Positions 21,698 through 36,468 of a stretch of 42,422 bases of DNA are shown piece by piece (position 1 is the stretch's first letter; the number at the start of each line of letters is the position of its first letter). Source of the stretch: Coriobacteriia bacterium (GTDB taxonomy: Bacteria > Actinomycetota > Coriobacteriia > Anaerosomatales > Anaerosomataceae); assembly GCA_016933785.1 (NCBI GenBank), contig JAFGAG010000073.1:1-42422 (forward strand), read 5' to 3'. The notes below the pieces were generated by a model. It had not been told where the DNA came from. It ran no database searches and saw only the letters and a program-made list of their open reading frames with translations. Position numbers and translations under genes: made by a program.

Positions 21698-23176
21698 CTA
21701 CCAGTCCACGATGCGGCGCTCACCCTCAAGCGCACGGATATGCGTGGCATCTTGCACGACCTCGAGACAGCCGCGGTATCCGCCGACTGCGTCGCGCATG
21801 GCGAAATACCGGATGTGGAGGAACCTTCCCTGCATTTGGATCCAGAACTCGGCCGTGTCCTTCTCGCCGCCCCTGAAGGAGGTGAGTATCTCCTCGACCT
21901 TGTGTACGCTCGCCGGCGGGTGACAGTTGCGGACCTCACGGCCGATGACCGCGGGCGAGCGTGGGAAAACGCGCTCGCCTTCAGAGTAGAAGCGGACGCG
22001 GTCGTGCTCATCAACGAAGCTGAGGTCGAACGGCAGCGCGCTGAGCATCAGGTCTACTTGCTCTCGCGTGAGCGCGCCGGTGGTGAGGAGGAGTTGCGCA
22101 TCCGCCACCATCTGTCCGGATGTCGGCGCTGCGCCCTCGAGCGTGGGCGCACCTCCCGTGCCGGGAAGGACGGTGGCGCTGGCTCCCGCCAATACGGGAG
22201 CTTCGATCCAGGCGTAGCCGATCTCCGCATCACCCGAGGCGAGCGCGATCCACTCTGCCTCATCGAGCACGTCGAGCGCCGTCGGGAACAGGATCTTCTC
22301 CTCCTTGTAGACCATGTCATCAACAGCCTGGAGCGTCTCCCCGAGCGACTCTGCGACCTCATCGGTGTCGCCCGCCTCGGCACTCGCACGATCTCGCCGG
22401 ATCATCGCGATGATATCGTCATCGAGCGCCCACATGACCTTGGTGGGCCCCTCCACGCCATGGCTTTCGAGCACGGGGAAGAGCTGCATCTCTTTGCGAC
22501 GGTAATGCGTTGCGACCTCCGAGAGGCGCGCAAGGCCCTCGGCGATACGGGCGATGACGCTGCGGTCCGCGGCGAGCGCTTCGAGGTCGGCCCGAAGCGC
22601 AGCCGTGATCTCGGCCACGACCTCGTTCTCGCGCACGTAGGCGTCGACCGGATGGGTGGCGGCGACCGCCAGCACCTCCCCCGACTCGAGCGACTCTTTG
22701 AACACGGCCACATGCACGTCGCAGAGACGCTGTACCTCGGTGACGGGCATCCCCTCGGCGATCAGCGCTTGCTCCATCATGGCAACCTCGGCGGCATCGA
22801 TGTCGCGCGCAAGCTCGTCGAAGCGCGCCTTCACCGACTCCACGCTGGCGCCGTCGTGCAACTCGCGGATGAGTCCCTTCAGTGTCTCCTGGCGGCGTGC
22901 CCGCTCAGCGTCGTCCAGCGGTGGCGCCGCGCCGGCGGTCTCTTCGGCCACGATGGAGTGCATCGCGACTTGCTCGCGAACGGCTTCGGCGAGTGTCTCG
23001 GGGTCGAGATCGGCCATCTTCGCGGCGGCCTCAAGTGTGGCGACACGGCCCACGGTGTTGTAGACCACCGGATTGGCCAGTTTCTCGAATGCCGGTGCAT
23101 AGCCCGTGAGCCATGACTTCAGGAACGGGTACGTCTGAAGTAGGTCGTGCACTTTGGTGTCGGGCCCGATTCGCAT
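21698..23176 (-). CDS. DUF438/hemerythrin/PAS domain protein
   Basis: LKGLIRELHDGASVESVKARFDELARDIDAAEVAMMEQALIAEGMPVTEVQRLCDVHVAVF (DUF438), ATHYRRKEMQLFPVLESHGVEGPTKVMWALDDDI (hemerythrin), C-terminal PAS. Confidence 0.88.
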   Translation of the reverse strand: MRIGPDTKVHDLLQTYPFLKSWLTGYAPAFEKLANPVVYNTVGRVATLEAAAKMADLDPETLAEAVREQVAMHSIVAEETAGAAPPLDDAERARRQETLKGLIRELHDGASVESVKARFDELARDIDAAEVAMMEQALIAEGMPVTEVQRLCDVHVAVFKESLESGEVLAVAATHPVDAYVRENEVVAEITAALRADLEALAADRSVIARIAEGLARLSEVATHYRRKEMQLFPVLESHGVEGPTKVMWALDDDIIAMIRRDRASAEAGDTDEVAESLGETLQAVDDMVYKEEKILFPTALDVLDEAEWIALASGDAEIGYAWIEAPVLAGASATVLPGTGGAPTLEGAAPTSGQMVADAQLLLTTGALTREQVDLMLSALPFDLSFVDEHDRVRFYSEGERVFPRSPAVIGREVRNCHPPASVHKVEEILTSFRGGEKDTAEFWIQMQGRFLHIRYFAMRDAVGGYRGCLEVVQDATHIRALEGERRIVDW

Positions 23177-23366: not shown

Positions 23367-24317
23367 GTGAACATGTACCTCGCCGCACTGCTCGGCTTCG
23401 TGCTGCTCTTCGGCGGTGGAGAAGGCCTCGTCCGTGGCGCCGTCGCGGTGGCACGCCGGTTCGGGCTGTCCTCCCTACTCATAGGCCTCACGGTCGTGGC
23501 CGCCGGCACGTCGGCGCCGGAACTCATCGTCAGCCTGAGCGCCGCGATCAAAGGCAATGCCGATATCGCGCTCGGCAACGTGGTGGGCAGCAACATCTTC
23601 AACGTGCTCGGGGTGCTCGGTATCTCCGCGCTCATCGCACCGATCATCGTGAAGCCTGCCGAGGTGAAGCGGGACACGCTCATCATGGCGGGTGCGATGG
23701 TCGCACTCGCGGTCGCGGCGCAGTCTGGTGTGATCGGCTGGCCGGTGGGATCGATGCTCATCGTCGCGGTCATCGGCTACACGGTCTACTCCTACCGTAC
23801 CGAGCTGCGCGAGAAGCCGGCGCCCTCTGCGGAGCTCCACGAGCACGAGGGTGAAGAGTTCGAGGGGCCGTCGAGCCTCTGGCTCGGTCTGCTGTATATC
23901 GCCCTCGGGCTCGGCGCGCTGGTCATCGGCTCCCAGCTGCTGGTCACGGGGGCCACCGAGATCGCCCGTACGTTCGGCGTTCCGGAGGCCGTGATCGGCC
24001 TCACACTCGTCGCCATCGGCACTTCACTGCCCGAACTCGCCACGAGCATCGCCGCGGCGGTGCGTGGACACTCCGATGTGGCGGTCGGCAATGTGTTGGG
24101 CAGCAACATCTTCAACGCGCTGCTGATCATCGGCGCGACCGCGGTGGTCCGCCCTATCGGTGTGGCCGAGAGCATGGCGCGCCTGGACGTCTGGCTCATG
24201 GTGGCCGCGGCCCTCGCCCTCATACCGCTTCTCATCGGCCGGGGCCGCATCGGGCGGGTGGCGGGCGTGGTACTCACCGCTTCATACGCGATCTACGCGG
24301 TGCTTCTGCTCGCGTAG
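23367..24317 (+). CDS. Calcium/sodium antiporter (YrbG-like CaCA family)
   Basis: Two repeats: VVAAGTSAPELIVSLSAAIKGNADIALGNVVGSNIFNVL and LVAIGTSLPELATSIAAAVRGHSDVAVGNVLGSNIFNALLI; GTG 23367 after GAAGGAG. Confidence 0.95.
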   Translation: MNMYLAALLGFVLLFGGGEGLVRGAVAVARRFGLSSLLIGLTVVAAGTSAPELIVSLSAAIKGNADIALGNVVGSNIFNVLGVLGISALIAPIIVKPAEVKRDTLIMAGAMVALAVAAQSGVIGWPVGSMLIVAVIGYTVYSYRTELREKPAPSAELHEHEGEEFEGPSSLWLGLLYIALGLGALVIGSQLLVTGATEIARTFGVPEAVIGLTLVAIGTSLPELATSIAAAVRGHSDVAVGNVLGSNIFNALLIIGATAVVRPIGVAESMARLDVWLMVAAALALIPLLIGRGRIGRVAGVVLTASYAIYAVLLLA

Positions 24318-24358: not shown

Positions 24359-24529
24359 CTACGGATGCACTCCCGACCACGGAGCACCTATCCCGATGCC
24401 GGGTGCGTCTTGCCATCCCCATCCGGGATCGCCTCCGCTGCCACCGTGCGCCAGTGCCTCTGTGCTGGCAGAGAGCACGAATGCGACAGCGAGCACCGCG
24501 AGAACGAGGGAGCGCGTACGCTTCTTCAT
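24359..24529 (-). CDS. Small secreted protein, 56 aa (not in the ORF track)
   Basis: MKKRTRSLVLAVLAVAFVLSASTEALAHGGSGGDPGWGWQDAPGIGIGAPWSGVHP; signal peptide; GGGGAGGTGA SD upstream of ATG 24529. Confidence 0.75.
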   Translation of the reverse strand: MKKRTRSLVLAVLAVAFVLSASTEALAHGGSGGDPGWGWQDAPGIGIGAPWSGVHP

Positions 24530-24552
24530 GTCGGTTCACCTCCCCGTACGGC

Positions 24553-24623
24553 CCGCACGATCCGCCGGGATACCGGCGTGCGTGCGGTCTATCCCCCCGC
24601 CCACTGGCGAGCCCTCATGGGCG
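24553..24623 (-). promoter_or_regulatory. Hairpin-rich leader upstream of the small secreted ORF
   Basis: On minus: CGCCCA-N14-TGGGCG, then CCGCACG-CA-CGCCGG-TATC-CCGGCG-GAT-CGTGCGG just before the SD. Confidence 0.4.
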
Positions 24624-24751
24624 ATGAGACTTCCTACCCACGAGCGTCGGCGCATAACGCATGGGGCGGCTGTGTGGCCCAGGGAGCTGTGCGGGGGTAG
24701 CATGGGGCCAGACATGCGGCTGGATCGCACGCGCAACCAACAGGAGCACAC

Positions 24752-25402
24752 ATGCACGTGGTCATCGGGGGGTACGGGCGGGTCGGGCGCTATCTTGCGT
24801 TCATGCTCGAGGAGCGTGGGCACCGGGTCTCGGTGATCGACCACGACGAGAGCGCCTTCGCGGCCGCGGGGCGCGATATCCGCGGGCGTCGCATCACCGG
24901 CGAGGTGTTCGACCGTGCGACCCTCGAGAAGGCGGGCATCGCCGACGCGGACGCCTACGCGGCTGTAACGAGCGGTGACAACAGCAACATCGTGAGTGCC
25001 CGCGTGGCCCGTGAGCGCTTCGGAGTGCCGTGCGTGGTGGCACGCATCTACGACCCCCGTCGCGCGCTGATCTACGAACGGTTCGGCATCCCCACCATCT
25101 CGAGCGTCAACTGGTCGGGCGCCATGCTGCTCGCGACCATCCTCGAGCCCGACGTCAAGACAACCGCCATCTATGGCGGCGGCGAGGTGCTCACGATCAC
25201 GGCCGACGCATCACTCAGCCTGACCGGCAAGCGGGTGAGCAACCTGGATTACCCGGGCAAGTTCCACATCTCGGCCATCGTGCGTGATGGCATCGCCCGG
25301 CTCCCCGAGCCGAGGACCGAGCTCATCAAGGGAGACCGACTGAGCATCACCGTGACCCGTGAAGCCCTTCCGGAGCTCAAGCGGCTCCTCGACCTGGAGT
25401 AG
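24752..25402 (+). CDS. TrkA/RCK-family protein 1 (CeoB-like)
   Basis: MHVVIGGYGRVGRYLAFMLEERGHRVSVIDHDESAF, TrkA-N Rossmann plus TrkA-C. Confidence 0.9.
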   Translation: MHVVIGGYGRVGRYLAFMLEERGHRVSVIDHDESAFAAAGRDIRGRRITGEVFDRATLEKAGIADADAYAAVTSGDNSNIVSARVARERFGVPCVVARIYDPRRALIYERFGIPTISSVNWSGAMLLATILEPDVKTTAIYGGGEVLTITADASLSLTGKRVSNLDYPGKFHISAIVRDGIARLPEPRTELIKGDRLSITVTREALPELKRLLDLE

Positions 25403-25412
25403 GAGGCCGCTG

Positions 25413-26105
25413 GTGAAGATCATCATCGTCGGCGGTGGCAAGACAGGGGCGTACCTCGCCGAGCGCCTGCAGCACGACCACGAGATCGTCCTGATCGAGC
25501 AGCGTCGGGAGCGTGTGGAGCACCTCCGCATCGCGCTTCCGGAAATCGAGACGCTGCTGGGCGACGCGTGCGAGCCCGAGGTGCTCGAGGCGGCCGGAGC
25601 TGCGGGGTCGGACATGGTCATCGCCGTGACCGGTGACGACGAGGACAACCTCGTCGTTGCGATGCTGACCAAGGTACTCGAAGGCGGCATGGTGTACGCA
25701 CGCGTGAACCACCCTCAGAACGAGTGGTTGTTCGACAAAGACTGGGGTGTGGATGTCCCGGTCTCGTCCCCCGCGATGCTCTACGGGCTCATCGGCAGGG
25801 ACCTCGTGTTGGGCAACGTCGTGCCGCTACTCGACCTTCGGGCCGACGATGTCGTGGTCGAGGAAGTCACCCTGCCAGCCGAAGCCGGGGCCGTGGGACG
25901 TACGCTCGCCGATGTCTCGCTCCCGGCAAACGTCTCGGTGATCGCGGTCATCGCGGCCGGTGGTGCCGGCGTGCTACCCGCCCGAGGCGAGACCGCGCTC
26001 GGTGCGGGTGACGTGCTCCTGTTGCTCACACAGGGGACGCTCGATGAGGTGGCCGTGCTCGATGCGCTCGGCATCACGCACCCGGAAGAGCCTGGCGTCG
26101 AGTAG
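25413..26105 (+). CDS. TrkA/RCK-family protein 2 (CeoC-like)
   Basis: VKIIIVGGGKTGAYLAERLQHDHEIVLIEQRRERVEHL...VIAVTGDDEDNLVVAMLTK; GTG start. Confidence 0.9.
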   Translation: MKIIIVGGGKTGAYLAERLQHDHEIVLIEQRRERVEHLRIALPEIETLLGDACEPEVLEAAGAAGSDMVIAVTGDDEDNLVVAMLTKVLEGGMVYARVNHPQNEWLFDKDWGVDVPVSSPAMLYGLIGRDLVLGNVVPLLDLRADDVVVEEVTLPAEAGAVGRTLADVSLPANVSVIAVIAAGGAGVLPARGETALGAGDVLLLLTQGTLDEVAVLDALGITHPEEPGVE

Positions 26106-26111
26106 GCGCAC

Positions 26112-28004
26112 TCACTCCTGACGGCGCGGCGTCTCCGGCAGCGCGCACGCCAGCGGCGTGCACGGCTCGTTGATGTGATACGGCACGTCGGTAAGTATCA
26201 CGCCCGGCTCGCCGAAGAGTTGCTGCTTCAGGAACAACGACGTCTGATCATGCAGTATGGCGTCGCCTACGTTCTCCGGAGCGTACTCGGGGAGGATCAC
26301 CGTGACGACATGGTCGTTGGTGGGCCTGGGCACCGCACGGATGAACTCCATGATCGGGCTGAGTATCTCCCGGTAAGGCGACTCGATGATGGTGAGCTTG
26401 ATGCCGAATGCCGCCTTGTCCCAGCGCCTGCGGAACACATCGCCCGTACCGTCGATATCGACGTAGAGCGCCTCCACCCGGTCGGCCTGCAGTGTGCGCG
26501 CGTAGCGAAGGGCACGAACGAGGCGGCGGTCGATAGACTTCACCAGCACGATGACGTGGTTGTGCATGCGGTTGTACGACTGCCAGTCGAGGTCCGCGAA
26601 CTCATCGGGACGGATCGCAAGGTCCTTGCGAACGCGATCGTACTGGCGGCGCACCCAGAGGAACAGCGCCACTATCGCCGGGATGAGGATGAGCACGATC
26701 CAGGCGCCGTGCGCGAACTTCGCGGTCGCGATGACCGCGGTGACCACACCTGTGGCGGTCGCCCCCACCGCATTGATCGCGAGCGAGCGCTGCCACCCCT
26801 GCTCCCGGATGCGGAGATGATGCCGCACCATGCCCGCCTGCGACAGCGTGAAGGATAGGAAGACGCCCACCGCGTACAGCGGGATGAGCCTGGTGGTCAC
26901 ACCGCCGAACGCCACCAACAGCACGATGGCGGCGATGGTGAGCAGGATGATCCCGTTGCTGAAGACGAGACGGTGCCCCCGGTCGCGGAGCTGGTGCGGC
27001 AGGAAGTCATCATCGGCCACGAAGGAGGATAGGCGCGGAAAGTCCGCATACGCGGTATTGGCCGCAAGCACGAGGATCGCGGCGACGCTCGCGGAGATAA
27101 CGTAGTAGAACCACCCGGTGCCGAACATTGCCCGCGAGAGCTGGCTGATGACCGTCTCGGTCTCGGATGGCTGGACCCCTGCGAGCGTCGAGAGCAGCAC
27201 GATCCCCGTGAAGAGGAAGAGGAGGATGCCCGCCATCCAGGTGAGCGTGATCGACGCGTTCTTGCCCTCCGGCTGCCGGAACGCCTGCACGCCGTTGGCG
27301 ATCGCTTCAACGCCAGTCATCGCGGTGCAACCCGAAGCGAACGCCTTGAGCACGAGGAAGAGGCCCAGGCTCTGCACGATCTCGATGGGCTCGGCGGGCA
27401 CCGGGACCGTGAACGGGTCGCCGGTGGCGAACCTCACGAGCCCCGCAACCACCATGAAGCCGATGAGCGCGATGAACGCGAACGTGGGCCCGGCGAAGAT
27501 CGTCCCGGACTCCTTGACGCCTCGCAGGTTGGCGACCGCGAGCAGCAGCACGAACCCGATCGCGATCGGCACCGTGTACGGCAGGAGTTCGGGCCGGGCC
27601 GAGGTGATCGCAGCCACGGCAGCCGAGATCGACACTGCGACGGTGAGGATGTAGTCGACCAGGAGCGATGCGCCCGCGACGAGCCCGGGTACCGTCCCGA
27701 GATTCTCCTTGGCGACGATGTACGAACCGCCGCCGCCCGGGTACTCCCGGATCGTCTGGCGATACGACAGCACCACGATCACGAGCAGTACACCTATGGC
27801 CACGGCGATCGGGAGGGTGAGACTGAGCGCGGCGGTGCCGGCGAGGGCGAGCATGAGCATGATCTCGTGCGGCGCGTAGGCGACCGAGGAGAGCGCGTCG
27901 CTCGAGAAGACCGCGAGCGCGACCGGGTTGCTGAGGCGCTGGTGCATCGCCTCCCGGTTGTGCAGTGGATCGCCGAGCAGGAACCGCTTCAGTGGACCCG
28001 CCAT
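26112..28004 (-). CDS. APC-family permease, KimA-like
   Basis: LSNPVALAVFSSDALSSVAYAPHEIMLML, EYPGGGGSYIVAKENLGTVPGLVAGASLLVDYILTVAVSISA; about 12 TM segments plus cytosolic C-terminal domain. Confidence 0.9.
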   Translation of the reverse strand: MAGPLKRFLLGDPLHNREAMHQRLSNPVALAVFSSDALSSVAYAPHEIMLMLALAGTAALSLTLPIAVAIGVLLVIVVLSYRQTIREYPGGGGSYIVAKENLGTVPGLVAGASLLVDYILTVAVSISAAVAAITSARPELLPYTVPIAIGFVLLLAVANLRGVKESGTIFAGPTFAFIALIGFMVVAGLVRFATGDPFTVPVPAEPIEIVQSLGLFLVLKAFASGCTAMTGVEAIANGVQAFRQPEGKNASITLTWMAGILLFLFTGIVLLSTLAGVQPSETETVISQLSRAMFGTGWFYYVISASVAAILVLAANTAYADFPRLSSFVADDDFLPHQLRDRGHRLVFSNGIILLTIAAIVLLVAFGGVTTRLIPLYAVGVFLSFTLSQAGMVRHHLRIREQGWQRSLAINAVGATATGVVTAVIATAKFAHGAWIVLILIPAIVALFLWVRRQYDRVRKDLAIRPDEFADLDWQSYNRMHNHVIVLVKSIDRRLVRALRYARTLQADRVEALYVDIDGTGDVFRRRWDKAAFGIKLTIIESPYREILSPIMEFIRAVPRPTNDHVVTVILPEYAPENVGDAILHDQTSLFLKQQLFGEPGVILTDVPYHINEPCTPLACALPETPRRQE

Positions 28005-28077
28005 CGCCCGCCCTGTCGTATCGAGTGCCGTAAGTCGTCGACAAGCGTACTCCATACGGGCCGCCAGCGGACCGTCA

Positions 28078-33423: not shown

Positions 33424-36400
33424 CTAGTTCGCTGACCGCGGGAGCGTAAGGGAGAACGTCGAACCCTTCCCGGGTTCGCTCGTAACATGGATCTCTCCAC
33501 CGAGCAGCCGCGCGAGCTCCCGCGAGATCGTCAGCCCCAGCCCGGTCCCTTCATGTTCGAGGCCCGAGTCGACGTCCACCTGGCTGAACGGCTCGAATAT
33601 CAGCGGAATCTGTGAGAGCCGCACGCCCCGCCCGGTGTCCGAGACCGCGAAGCGCACGACACCAACCTCAGCGGTCAGGCACAACTCGATGTGGCCCTCG
33701 CCGGTGAACTTGACGGCATTGCCGCCCAGATTCAGCAGGATTCGCTTCACCTTCATCCGATCGGACTCTATCCGCACCTCCGACTCCGGCGTCGCTACGC
33801 GAAGATCGAGCCCCGCATCCCCTGCGAGCGGCCGTAAGAAGTCGGCTACCTCCTCCAGCAGTTCGCCTGCAGAGAAGTCCTGACGATCCACGGGTGCACG
33901 GCCTACCTGAGCGCGCGTGAGATCGAGCAGGTCGTTGATGATGGCGAGCAGGTGCCGTCCGGCTGAGTTGATCATCCCGACCTCGACCCCCTGCTCCTCG
34001 GTCAGCGGACCTGCAACGCCCTGTCTGAGTATCGCCGAGAAGCCGATGATCGAGTTCAGCGGAGTGCGAAGTTCGTGGCTGAGACGGGTGAAGAGCTCCA
34101 CCTTTGCATCCGTCGTGCGCTTCAGCTCAACGTTGGCCGCCTCCAGGTCGCGCGTGCGCGCGCTGACCAACTCTTCGAGGTGCTCCCTGTGCTGCTCGAG
34201 CTCGGCCGCCGAGCGCTTCGCCTCGGTGATGTCGCGCACGAAGACCACTGCGCCAGGCTTGCGCCCGTACATGATCGGCGCGCCACTCGTCTCCACATCG
34301 ATCTCGCTGCCATCCATTCGCAGATGTACCATCTCCTGTGGTGGCTGCGACCGATGATCCTCGTTCAACGCTTCGATGCGTGCCCTCGCCAACTCGCGCA
34401 TGTCCACCCGAATCCGGTCCAAGACGGGCTGCCCGATAAGTTCATCCGCGGTCGTCGCGCCGTACAGACCGACCGCCGCCTCGTTCAAGTAGGCGAAGCG
34501 ATGCTCCGTCTGCACGAAGATCGCCTCCGGTGCGGTGTCCACCAGTGCTCGGAAACGGTGCTCACTTTCGTGCAGCGCCCGCTCGGCATCTCGGCGAAGC
34601 GTCACGTCCGTGAAGATCGACATGTTGTACGTGTCCCCGCCGAGGACCACCGGAGTGGTCGCAACCGATACCCATCGCGTACCGCCGTCCTTACGGACGA
34701 TCTCAGTCTCCAGATACGGGAGGCCGCCATCGAGCGCATCGGCGGCCAGACGGATCGCCTCGGCCCGTCGCTCGGGCGTGGGGAAGACGAGCTCGAACCA
34801 GCTCTCGCGCTCGACTTCCTCTTTTGTATAGCCGCTGATGTCCTCCATCGCCCGGTTGTACACAAGTAGCCGACCGTCCGGGTGTCCCACTGAGACGCCC
34901 TGGTCCGTCTGTTCGATGAGCGTACGGAACCGCGCTTCACTCTCCGCGAGGCGTTCCTGCGTGCGCAGCCTTTCCAGGGTGACGAAGCACAGGTTGGCGA
35001 ACGATTCCACCACGCCGCACGGCATCTCGGCATCCAGCTCGCGGGTCAACACGTGTACCCCCGCGTGGGCGAGGCCCGAGTCCGCAACGCCGATGGTCCA
35101 CAGTTCCACGGTGCCGAGCATCCGCTCCAGTGCTCTGGCTACCGCCTGCGGGACTTGCTCGCGTGCCAGTTCCGATAGCCCTCCTTCGATGCGCTCCATC
35201 CTGCCGGCTTCAAGGATCCGTCGATACGCCTTGGTCACCGGGTACCTTTGATCATGGATCGCCCAGCCAATGAGCTGCTCTGCCTTGTGGACCAGATTCG
35301 CATCCACACCGACGACATCCCGCGTGACGAGGGCACCATCCGATGGATCCACCTCGTTGATGATCACGACCGCCTCGGGAAACTCGGCGGCGAAGAAGTC
35401 ACGGACGACCGCGAAGACAGAGTCTCTGTCTGGTGCCCGCAACAGTCGTGCACTTGCAACCGCGAGCAGCTCGGCCTCGATGACGCGCCGCTCCATGGCC
35501 TCGGCTGCCCGCAGCGTCCTGCTGACGTCGGCGATGATTCCAAGGATGCGCGTTGGCTCACCCGCAGCGTTCCGGTCGCTTACGACACCGAGCAGCTGGT
35601 ACCAGCGATGACGTCCGTCGGGGTGATGCCACCGAAAGTGATGACCCGACTCGTCCGTGTGCTCCGAGGCGAGCGCGGCTAGATGTGCATCGAAGGCCGT
35701 GCGGTCTTCCGGATGGATTCCGGCGCGCCACTCCGCTGACGGCATCGACGCAGGTCCATCGCCGAGACCCATCAGCCGCGCGGCTTCCGCCGACAGGCTC
35801 ATAGTGTCCGATGCGATGTCCAGGTCCCACGTGCCCTCCTCGGCTGCAGCCATCGCGAGGCGGAGACGACTCGATTCATCAACCAGCGCTGCCCGAACCT
35901 GTTCGCGCTCCAGCTGCTCGATCATCATTCGGGCCGCGAAGGCGGTCGCAAACGGGAACAGCGTCAAGAGCAATGGACCGACCTCACGAACCACCCTGGC
36001 GCCCATGTCGGCCGGCAGTAGGAGATACTGGACTCCGAGCATCGCGATATGCACGACAAGGCCGAACGCAACGAGTTCGACCGTGCGAAGCGATGCCAGA
36101 CGACCGCGGCTGAGCCGGTGCATCCCCACCCCGAGGACACCGGACGTCACGACCGTCATCACGCCCGCGAACGCCCCCGGACCCCCCAGGAAGATGCGGT
36201 AGCCGACCGTGATCGCTCCCGCCACCAGTGCCACGGGTGCACCCCCGAAGAGACCGGCAAGGCTCATGACGATCGACCGGCCGTCGTAGAACACGCCCGG
36301 CGAGAAGCTGAAGGGTGTGAGCATGCCGACCACAGCGACGGCGCCATAGACGACACCGGAGGCGATGACACTGAGACGCGGGTGGGCGATCAGAATCCGC

Positions 36401-36468
36401 GCGAGGTACCGCAGTGCGGTGGCCAGCAACACCACGAGGGCGACGTTCTGTATGAGCGTTAGAAACAC
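33424..36468 (-). CDS. Multi-PAS sensor histidine kinase with LytS-type 5TM N-terminus
   Basis: N-terminal SPGVFYDGRSIVMSLAGLFGGAPVALVAGAITVGYRIFLGG (5TMR_LYT-like), several PAS, HisKA (LFTRLSHELRTPLNSIIGF), HATPase (NLGGNAVKFTGEG, DTGRGV, GTGLGLTIS). Confidence 0.93.
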   Translation of the reverse strand: MFLTLIQNVALVVLLATALRYLARILIAHPRLSVIASGVVYGAVAVVGMLTPFSFSPGVFYDGRSIVMSLAGLFGGAPVALVAGAITVGYRIFLGGPGAFAGVMTVVTSGVLGVGMHRLSRGRLASLRTVELVAFGLVVHIAMLGVQYLLLPADMGARVVREVGPLLLTLFPFATAFAARMMIEQLEREQVRAALVDESSRLRLAMAAAEEGTWDLDIASDTMSLSAEAARLMGLGDGPASMPSAEWRAGIHPEDRTAFDAHLAALASEHTDESGHHFRWHHPDGRHRWYQLLGVVSDRNAAGEPTRILGIIADVSRTLRAAEAMERRVIEAELLAVASARLLRAPDRDSVFAVVRDFFAAEFPEAVVIINEVDPSDGALVTRDVVGVDANLVHKAEQLIGWAIHDQRYPVTKAYRRILEAGRMERIEGGLSELAREQVPQAVARALERMLGTVELWTIGVADSGLAHAGVHVLTRELDAEMPCGVVESFANLCFVTLERLRTQERLAESEARFRTLIEQTDQGVSVGHPDGRLLVYNRAMEDISGYTKEEVERESWFELVFPTPERRAEAIRLAADALDGGLPYLETEIVRKDGGTRWVSVATTPVVLGGDTYNMSIFTDVTLRRDAERALHESEHRFRALVDTAPEAIFVQTEHRFAYLNEAAVGLYGATTADELIGQPVLDRIRVDMRELARARIEALNEDHRSQPPQEMVHLRMDGSEIDVETSGAPIMYGRKPGAVVFVRDITEAKRSAAELEQHREHLEELVSARTRDLEAANVELKRTTDAKVELFTRLSHELRTPLNSIIGFSAILRQGVAGPLTEEQGVEVGMINSAGRHLLAIINDLLDLTRAQVGRAPVDRQDFSAGELLEEVADFLRPLAGDAGLDLRVATPESEVRIESDRMKVKRILLNLGGNAVKFTGEGHIELCLTAEVGVVRFAVSDTGRGVRLSQIPLIFEPFSQVDVDSGLEHEGTGLGLTISRELARLLGGEIHVTSEPGKGSTFSLTLPRSAN

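What the first reader, a model, noticed from the sequence alone, without database searches (positions are those of the whole stretch)
24359..24529. Unannotated 56-aa secreted Gly/Trp-rich protein
The minus strand between the antiporter and TrkA genes encodes MKKRTRSLVLAVLAVAFVLSASTEALA|HGGSGGDPGWGWQDAPGIGIGAPWSGVHP with a near-ideal SD. It falls below the ORF-track length cutoff. The predicted mature peptide is only about 29 aa and rich in Gly, Trp and Pro.
Basis: seen in the sequence. Interest (0 to 1): 0.6.

Follow-up and report, generated by a model that had tools for sequence, protein, structure and literature searches.

The report
Lineage-restricted small secreted glycine-tryptophan peptide
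A tiny bacterial gene for a 56-residue protein, probably exported and trimmed to a 29-residue glycine- and tryptophan-rich peptide that begins with histidine, is a real protein-coding gene kept by selection in a few related bacteria; its job is unknown, and metal binding outside the cell is the best testable guess.

Summary
Minus-strand 24359-24529 encodes the stated 56-aa ORF, with a strong Shine-Dalgarno sequence and an in-frame stop two codons before the ATG. It is a real gene. Orthologues lie at the same place in two same-genus genomes (79% identity) and at a different place in a genome of another genus (57%). The mature part is under strong purifying selection (omega 0.085 and 0.13), and no permutation of 20,000 matched the observed conservation. 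All four proteins keep AxA|HGG and the core HGGxGG[D/E]PGWGWxDAPG...GAPWSG.

The gene is rare and patchy: 4 of 69 genomes of the order, with clean empty sites in close relatives at both loci. The locus therefore gives no support for a role in K+ or Ca2+ transport. Both copies point at a convergent gene and no same-strand gene follows, which argues against an arrest/leader peptide, a toxin-antitoxin pair and a bacteriocin with an adjacent immunity gene. No Pfam, NCBIfam, PHROG, PADLOC, plasmid, phage or PDB match.

Best mechanism, inferred: Sec export, signal peptidase cleavage, release of an anionic 28-29-aa peptide whose free N-terminal histidine chelates a transition metal. Gene real: about 0.95. 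Export and cleavage: about 0.85. Metal binding: about 0.3. "Unannotated" could not be checked.

The parts
24359..24529 (-). 56-aa coding sequence MKKRTRSLVLAVLAVAFVLSASTEALAHGGSGGDPGWGWQDAPGIGIGAPWSGVHP plus stop
   Evidence: ORF; orthologues; purifying selection
24449..24529 (-). predicted Sec signal peptide, residues 1-27, ending ALA (AxA in all four orthologues)
   Evidence: alignment; AlphaFold helix 2-29 with block pLDDT 81-88; sequence diverges faster than the mature part; SignalP not available
24362..24448 (-). predicted mature peptide HGGSGGDPGWGWQDAPGIGIGAPWSGVHP, 29 aa, average mass 2810.0, predicted charge about -2, no Lys/Arg/Cys
   Evidence: (omega 0.085 and 0.13)
24536..24545 (-). 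Shine-Dalgarno GGGGAGGTGA; its TGA (24536-24538) is an in-frame stop two codons upstream of the ATG
24552..24588 (-). second conserved hairpin of the leader, CCGCACG...CGTGCGG, with diverged inner arms
   Evidence: found only upstream of this gene and only in G000, G002, G003
24591..24630 (-). first conserved hairpin of the leader, GTCTCATCGCCCA...TGGGCGGGGGGAT; arms nearly invariant between species, loop diverged
   Evidence: (19/20 over the 5' arm window and 16-18/20 over the 3' arm windows, against 7-10/20 in most windows just upstream)
24634..24639 (-). GGGTAG directly upstream of the hairpin (GGGTAC in G002/G003), possible -10 element of an alternative sigma factor; speculative
   Evidence: conserved in alignment only; the sigma-70 scan found nothing
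24698..24703 (+). TAGCAT, likely -10 of the divergent TrkA promoter, also upstream of TrkA in the empty-site relatives; puts the leader on the small-gene side

Best explanation
A lineage-restricted, patchily inherited single gene encodes a Sec-exported pre-peptide. Shown: the frame, start, stop and mature sequence are under purifying selection; the gene stands alone and sits at two different places, each empty in close relatives. [quoted passage not shown] Inferred, weaker: that histidine (amino and imidazole nitrogens), helped by invariant Asp/Glu-7 and the nearby Trp residues, chelates a transition metal such as Cu(II) or Ni(II) outside the cell, so the peptide acts as an extracellular metal binder or carrier. 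My estimates: gene real 0.95, exported and cleaved 0.85, metal binding 0.3.
For: Orthologues in G002, G003 (79%) and G009 (57% to the window protein); one is the MAG contig DSAI01000078.1. dN/dS of the mature part 0.085 and 0.13; substitutions concentrate at third positions, 12 of 16 in the mature part against G003; permutation 0/20,000. Comparable SD, same in-frame stop before ATG, same AxA|HGG in all four. His1, Gly2, Gly3, acidic residue 7, Trp10, Trp12, Asp14 and Trp24 are kept at 57% overall identity. Mature part free of Cys, nearly free of Lys/Arg, net charge -1 to -3. A free N-terminal His after signal cleavage chelates 3d metals regardless of fold and is rare, 2.6% of secreted proteins (PMC12537917). 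Bacillus subtilis YcnI binds Cu(II) with an N-terminal His, one Glu and a nearby Trp (PMC8424229).
Against: No direct evidence of transcription, translation, export or metal binding. SignalP was not available; cleavage one or two residues later would remove the N-terminal His. The organisms are probably strict anaerobes, where free Cu(II) is scarce (Ni or another metal is possible). No metal-handling gene that would point to Cu or Ni neighbours it at either locus. The mature part has no confident predicted fold (pLDDT about 46). The ligand set is inferred by analogy only.
Confidence: 0.35

Rival explanations
1. A secreted signalling peptide or pheromone sensed by a receptor elsewhere in the genome.
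For: Short, exported, conserved core with no fold, stand-alone gene with its own conserved leader. Patchy inheritance fits a dispensable social trait.
Against: No receptor, exporter or response regulator adjacent at either locus. The mature sequence is conserved across genera, whereas pheromone systems often diversify quickly (own knowledge).
Confidence: 0.25
2. A cell-envelope or matrix peptide: Gly/Trp-rich segments bind cell-wall polysaccharide or minerals, or coat the surface.
For: Gly/Trp/Pro composition and three invariant Trp. The family, if it is Anaerosomataceae as inferred, contains Gram-positive Fe(III)-reducing cells with pili-like appendages (PMC9686372).
Against: Short, with no anchor, Cys, repeat or sortase signal; absent from most relatives with the same presumed lifestyle.
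Confidence: 0.2
3. An antimicrobial (Sec-dependent bacteriocin) peptide.
For: Size, signal peptide, Trp and Gly content, patchy distribution.
Against: Net charge -1 to -3 with no Lys and at most one Arg, unlike membrane-active Trp-rich peptides. No immunity gene beside it at either locus. No PADLOC, Pfam or NCBIfam match.
Confidence: 0.1
4. A regulatory nascent peptide (secretion monitor such as SecM or ApcA) whose export state controls a downstream gene.
For: Signal peptide followed by a conserved C-terminal part with Ala-Pro-Gly; arrest peptides are known to be patchy (PMC10987492).
Against: No same-strand gene follows in either locus; the next gene is convergent. The motif is DAPG/GAPW, not R-A-P-P/G. 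No secA, secDF or yidC nearby.
Confidence: 0.04
5. Not coding on this strand: the conservation belongs to an antisense + strand ORF or to a structured RNA or DNA element.
For: Antisense frame 1 is also open in all four genomes with dN/dS 0.23-0.26, because its third positions coincide with those of the sense frame.
Against: The antisense frame has no conserved start or end (open lengths 122 to 339 codons, ATG absent at the conserved place in G009). Its replacements are less conservative than in the sense frame (mean BLOSUM -1.15 against 0.00 for G000/G009). The sense frame keeps SD, ATG, stop and signal peptide.
Confidence: 0.03

Closest known systems
Lineage-restricted small secreted proteins of unknown function (as catalogued in the global smORF catalogue GMSC, PMC11364881, and FESNov families, PMC10849945)
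   Same: Under 100 aa, signal peptide, purifying selection on the frame, found in mostly uncultured taxa, no known domain
   Different: Not checked for presence in those catalogues. This family has a 28-29-aa mature core, sits at two unrelated sites, and carries a conserved leader within the genus
[quoted passage not shown] 'signal-strapping' set, PMC12537917)
   Same: Invariant His directly after an AxA signal cleavage site, plus conserved acidic residues
   Different: Those described are folded domains; this is a 28-29-aa peptide with no predicted fold and no sequence match
YcnI/DUF1775 mono-histidine brace (PMC8424229)
   Same: The ligand types (N-terminal His, acidic residue, nearby Trp) are all present and conserved
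   Different: No DUF1775 domain, no cupredoxin fold, no copper operon; resemblance of parts only
Sec/YidC-associated arrest peptides (ApcA, ApdA, SecM; PMC10987492)
   Same: Signal peptide plus conserved C-terminal segment, patchy distribution, short ORF
   Different: No R-A-P-P/G motif and no downstream same-strand gene

Membership tests
Small secreted protein under selection | Frame conserved with dN/dS below 1 and more than chance | tested here: met
Small secreted protein under selection | Signal peptide with signal peptidase I site | tested here: inconclusive
   n-region, hydrophobic core and AxA|H conserved in four orthologues; SignalP not available
Small secreted protein under selection | Translated and found outside the cell | not testable with these tools
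   needs Ribo-seq and peptidomics
N-terminal-histidine metal-binding secreted proteins | Conserved His at mature position 1 | tested here: met
   His invariant directly after AxA in four orthologues; depends on the predicted cleavage site
N-terminal-histidine metal-binding secreted proteins | Binds a transition metal | not testable with these tools
   needs ITC or EPR
YcnI/DUF1775 | DUF1775 domain | tested here: not met
   Pfam scan, no DUF1775 match
Sec/YidC arrest peptide | Encoded upstream of and co-directional with secA, secDF, yidC or another regulated gene | tested here: not met
   next gene is convergent at both loci
Sec/YidC arrest peptide | R-A-P-P-like arrest motif | tested here: not met
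   conserved motifs are DAPG and GAPW; non-RAPP arrest motifs also exist
Cationic antimicrobial peptide or bacteriocin | Net positive charge | tested here: not met
   charge -1.2 to -3.1 at pH 7
Cationic antimicrobial peptide or bacteriocin | Adjacent immunity or transport gene | tested here: not met
   no candidate immunity gene or dedicated peptide exporter beside the gene at either locus; two ABC exporter genes lie about 3 kb away in the window but not at the G009 locus
Bacterial lipoprotein | Lipobox cysteine | tested here: not met
   no Cys in the mature part of any orthologue
RiPP precursor | Modifying enzyme gene nearby | tested here: not met
   none among the neighbours scanned by Pfam at either locus; distant enzymes not excluded

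The most novel reading that the evidence does not exclude
A ribosomally made, unmodified 28-29-aa secreted metallophore-like peptide: signal peptidase alone creates its metal site by exposing an N-terminal histidine (a minimal mono-histidine brace of His1, Asp/Glu7 and Trp), carried as a stand-alone gene that appears at unrelated intergenic sites.
Probability: 0.15. Interest if true: 0.65.

Novelty: new member of a known kind. Interest (0 to 1): 0.38.

Why it matters
It adds a real, selected small secreted protein family with no match in the libraries searched, in a poorly studied anaerobic Coriobacteriia lineage. One carrier appears to be a cultivated type strain, so expression and peptide release can be tested directly. 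The conserved N-terminal histidine gives a cheap, sharp biochemical test. If the metal idea holds, it would be a very simple case of a metal site made by signal cleavage alone; if not, it remains an ordinary orphan small protein.

Tried and rejected
Rfam at gathering and at permissive thresholds: nothing in the leader. Covariance model of the leader: only the three genus members score well; the next hits (E 0.01 and weaker) that I read lie in coding sequence or at gene ends, not before a small ORF. Pair counting shows no compensatory changes, because the arms are conserved in sequence; RNA structure is therefore neither supported nor refuted by covariation, and it could equally be a DNA palindrome. 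In single folds the window leader is only modestly more stable than shuffles (z -2.07) and the G003 leader is not (z -0.44). Conserved 15-mer of the leader as a regulon motif: no other exact copy in five genomes; near matches close to control level. Sigma-70 promoters and intrinsic terminators: none found. Viral contigs: the pattern hits read as unrelated frames or a tail-fibre-like protein. Plasmids, phages, PDB, PHROGs, PADLOC, NCBIfam: nothing significant. Weak hits in the class searches are mostly signal peptides of longer proteins or chance matches; not every one was read. Structure prediction: helix for the signal peptide, low confidence for the rest, so no fold search was made. Functional link to the antiporter or TrkA: no support, because G009 carries the gene elsewhere and G001 has both neighbours without it.

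Full report
WHAT IS THERE. The minus-strand ORF at 24359-24529 is exactly as reported. It starts at an ATG preceded by GGGGAGGTGA (24536-24545). The TGA within that sequence is in frame and ends two codons before the ATG, so the start codon is fixed; an in-frame stop two codons before the ATG is present in all four orthologues. It lies between a + strand Na/Ca-exchanger-family antiporter gene (its frame ends at 24317; PF01699) and a + strand TrkA gene (from 24752; PF02254, PF02080). In GC-rich DNA an ORF of this size is expected by chance many times over, so the case rests on comparison.

IS IT A GENE. Six-frame searches found orthologues in two same-genus genomes, G002 and G003 (79% identity), between the same two neighbours, and in G009, another genus of the same family (57% over the whole protein, 78% over the mature part). 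Pairwise dN/dS is 0.18 (window against G003) and 0.27 (window against G009) overall, and 0.085 and 0.13 for the mature part; in the mature part of the G003 comparison 12 of 16 differences are at third positions. Randomly re-placing the 36 observed nucleotide changes never gave as few as the observed 12 amino-acid changes in 20,000 trials, and 39% of trials created a stop.

SENSE OR ANTISENSE. One antisense frame (+ strand, inside ORF 24396-24836) is also open in all four genomes and shows dN/dS 0.23-0.26, because its third positions coincide with the sense third positions. It is rejected because it has no conserved start, ends or length (122 to 339 open codons), its replacements are less conservative (mean BLOSUM62 -1.15 against 0.00 for window/G009), and the sense frame alone keeps SD, ATG, stop, signal peptide and cleavage motif.

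ANATOMY OF THE PROTEIN. All four proteins have a K/R-rich start, a hydrophobic core and AxA directly before HGG. The mature peptide is HGG[SG]GG[DE]PGWGW[QL]DAPG-x(3-4)-GAPWSG with a variable end (VHP or R). It has 9-10 Gly, 4 Pro, 3 Trp, no Cys, no Lys, at most one Arg, and a predicted charge of -1.2 to -3.1. The mature part is more conserved than the signal peptide, as expected if the released peptide is what selection acts on. AlphaFold gives a helix for the signal peptide and low confidence beyond it (mean pLDDT 61; mature blocks about 46). No significant match in Pfam, NCBIfam, PHROGs, PADLOC or PDB.

DISTRIBUTION AND HISTORY. Only 4 of the 69 genomes held for the order carry it: three of four in the genus, one of two in G009's genus. 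A draw of 400 genomes of the class added none, nor did a pattern search of 397 genomes drawn from the phylum, nor plasmids or phages. G001, whose TrkA is 91% identical to the window's, has the antiporter and TrkA about 100 bp apart with no ORF and no leader, and G020, of another genus, has the same short gap. In G009 the gene sits between a histone-deacetylase-family gene and an isocitrate/isopropylmalate dehydrogenase gene. In G017, G008 and G023 those two genes are adjacent and the gene is not found. The gene has therefore been gained or lost at two unrelated sites. Horizontal transfer or transposition is inferred; no terminal repeats were seen around the window copy, and only one copy per genome was found.

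LEADER. Within the genus the roughly 100 nt upstream contain two hairpin-forming segments (24591-24630 and 24552-24588). The 5' arm of the first is conserved at 19/20 and the 3' arm at 16-18/20 between the window and G003, against 7-10/20 in most windows just upstream, and at synonymous sites about half the positions differ. The likely TrkA promoter (TAGCAT at 24698-24703, kept in the empty-site relatives) lies on the other side, so the leader goes with the small gene. All variation is one-sided, so covariation cannot confirm an RNA fold, and the single-sequence folds are not clearly better than shuffles. No Rfam family matches and no other gene was seen to carry it in the ten genomes searched. 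G009 does not share it.

HOW IT MIGHT WORK. Both copies stand alone: the following gene is convergent and no same-strand gene follows. This argues against a leader or arrest peptide, a toxin-antitoxin pair and a bacteriocin with adjacent immunity. The changed location suggests that the antiporter and TrkA are incidental neighbours. The peptide is acidic, which argues against a membrane-active antimicrobial. The one feature with a chemical prediction is the invariant histidine directly after the predicted cleavage site. An N-terminal His chelates 3d metals through its amino and imidazole nitrogens whatever the fold, and is rare among secreted proteins (2.6%; PMC12537917). In B. subtilis YcnI, one N-terminal His, one Glu and a nearby Trp suffice for nanomolar Cu(II) binding (PMC8424229). 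The peptide has the same kinds of residues (His1, Asp/Glu7, Trp10/12), all conserved. I therefore commit to an extracellular metal-binding peptide as the most likely single mechanism, at about 0.3, ahead of a signalling peptide (0.25) and an envelope peptide (0.2).

ORGANISM. Inference only: G003 (2.1 Mb, 6 contigs) and G015 (1.8 Mb, 9 contigs) match the published assemblies of Anaerosoma tenue M08DHB (2,107,022 bp, 6 contigs) and Parvivirga hydrogeniphila Es71-Z0120 (1,840,996 bp, 9 contigs) (PMC9686372; sizes). The order would then be Anaerosomatales (OPB41, Coriobacteriia), and a cultivated carrier exists.

VERDICT. The finding is right: a real, conserved, probably secreted small protein. 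It is a new family of a known kind, lineage-restricted small secreted proteins, with an interesting but unproven metal-binding possibility.

Noticed in passing
24396-24836 (+): An antisense ORF overlapping the small gene is open in all four orthologous regions and mimics conservation, because its third codon positions coincide with those of the sense gene; a trap for automatic gene callers.
   Followed up: yes
24362-24448 (-) and G009:C19:580-660: The window and G009 share a 30-nt identical stretch (cccggatggggatggcaagacgcacccggc) that differs from the same-genus G003 copy at several positions, which may hint at more recent exchange between the two lineages.
   Followed up: partly
21698-23176 (-): A DUF1858-DUF438-hemerythrin-PAS protein, possibly an oxygen, NO or metal sensor, next to the antiporter gene.
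   Followed up: no
24752-26105 (+): Two overlapping TrkA-type (N and C domain) genes in tandem, followed by a convergent amino-acid-permease/K+-transporter-like gene (26112-28055, -).
   Followed up: no
L033:2278-3870: In G009 a CxxCH-rich multihaem cytochrome gene lies on the far side of the histone-deacetylase-family gene next to the peptide gene.
   Followed up: no
33427-36468 (-): A 1014-aa sensor with a 5TM-5TMR_LYT region, several PAS domains and a histidine kinase.
   Followed up: no
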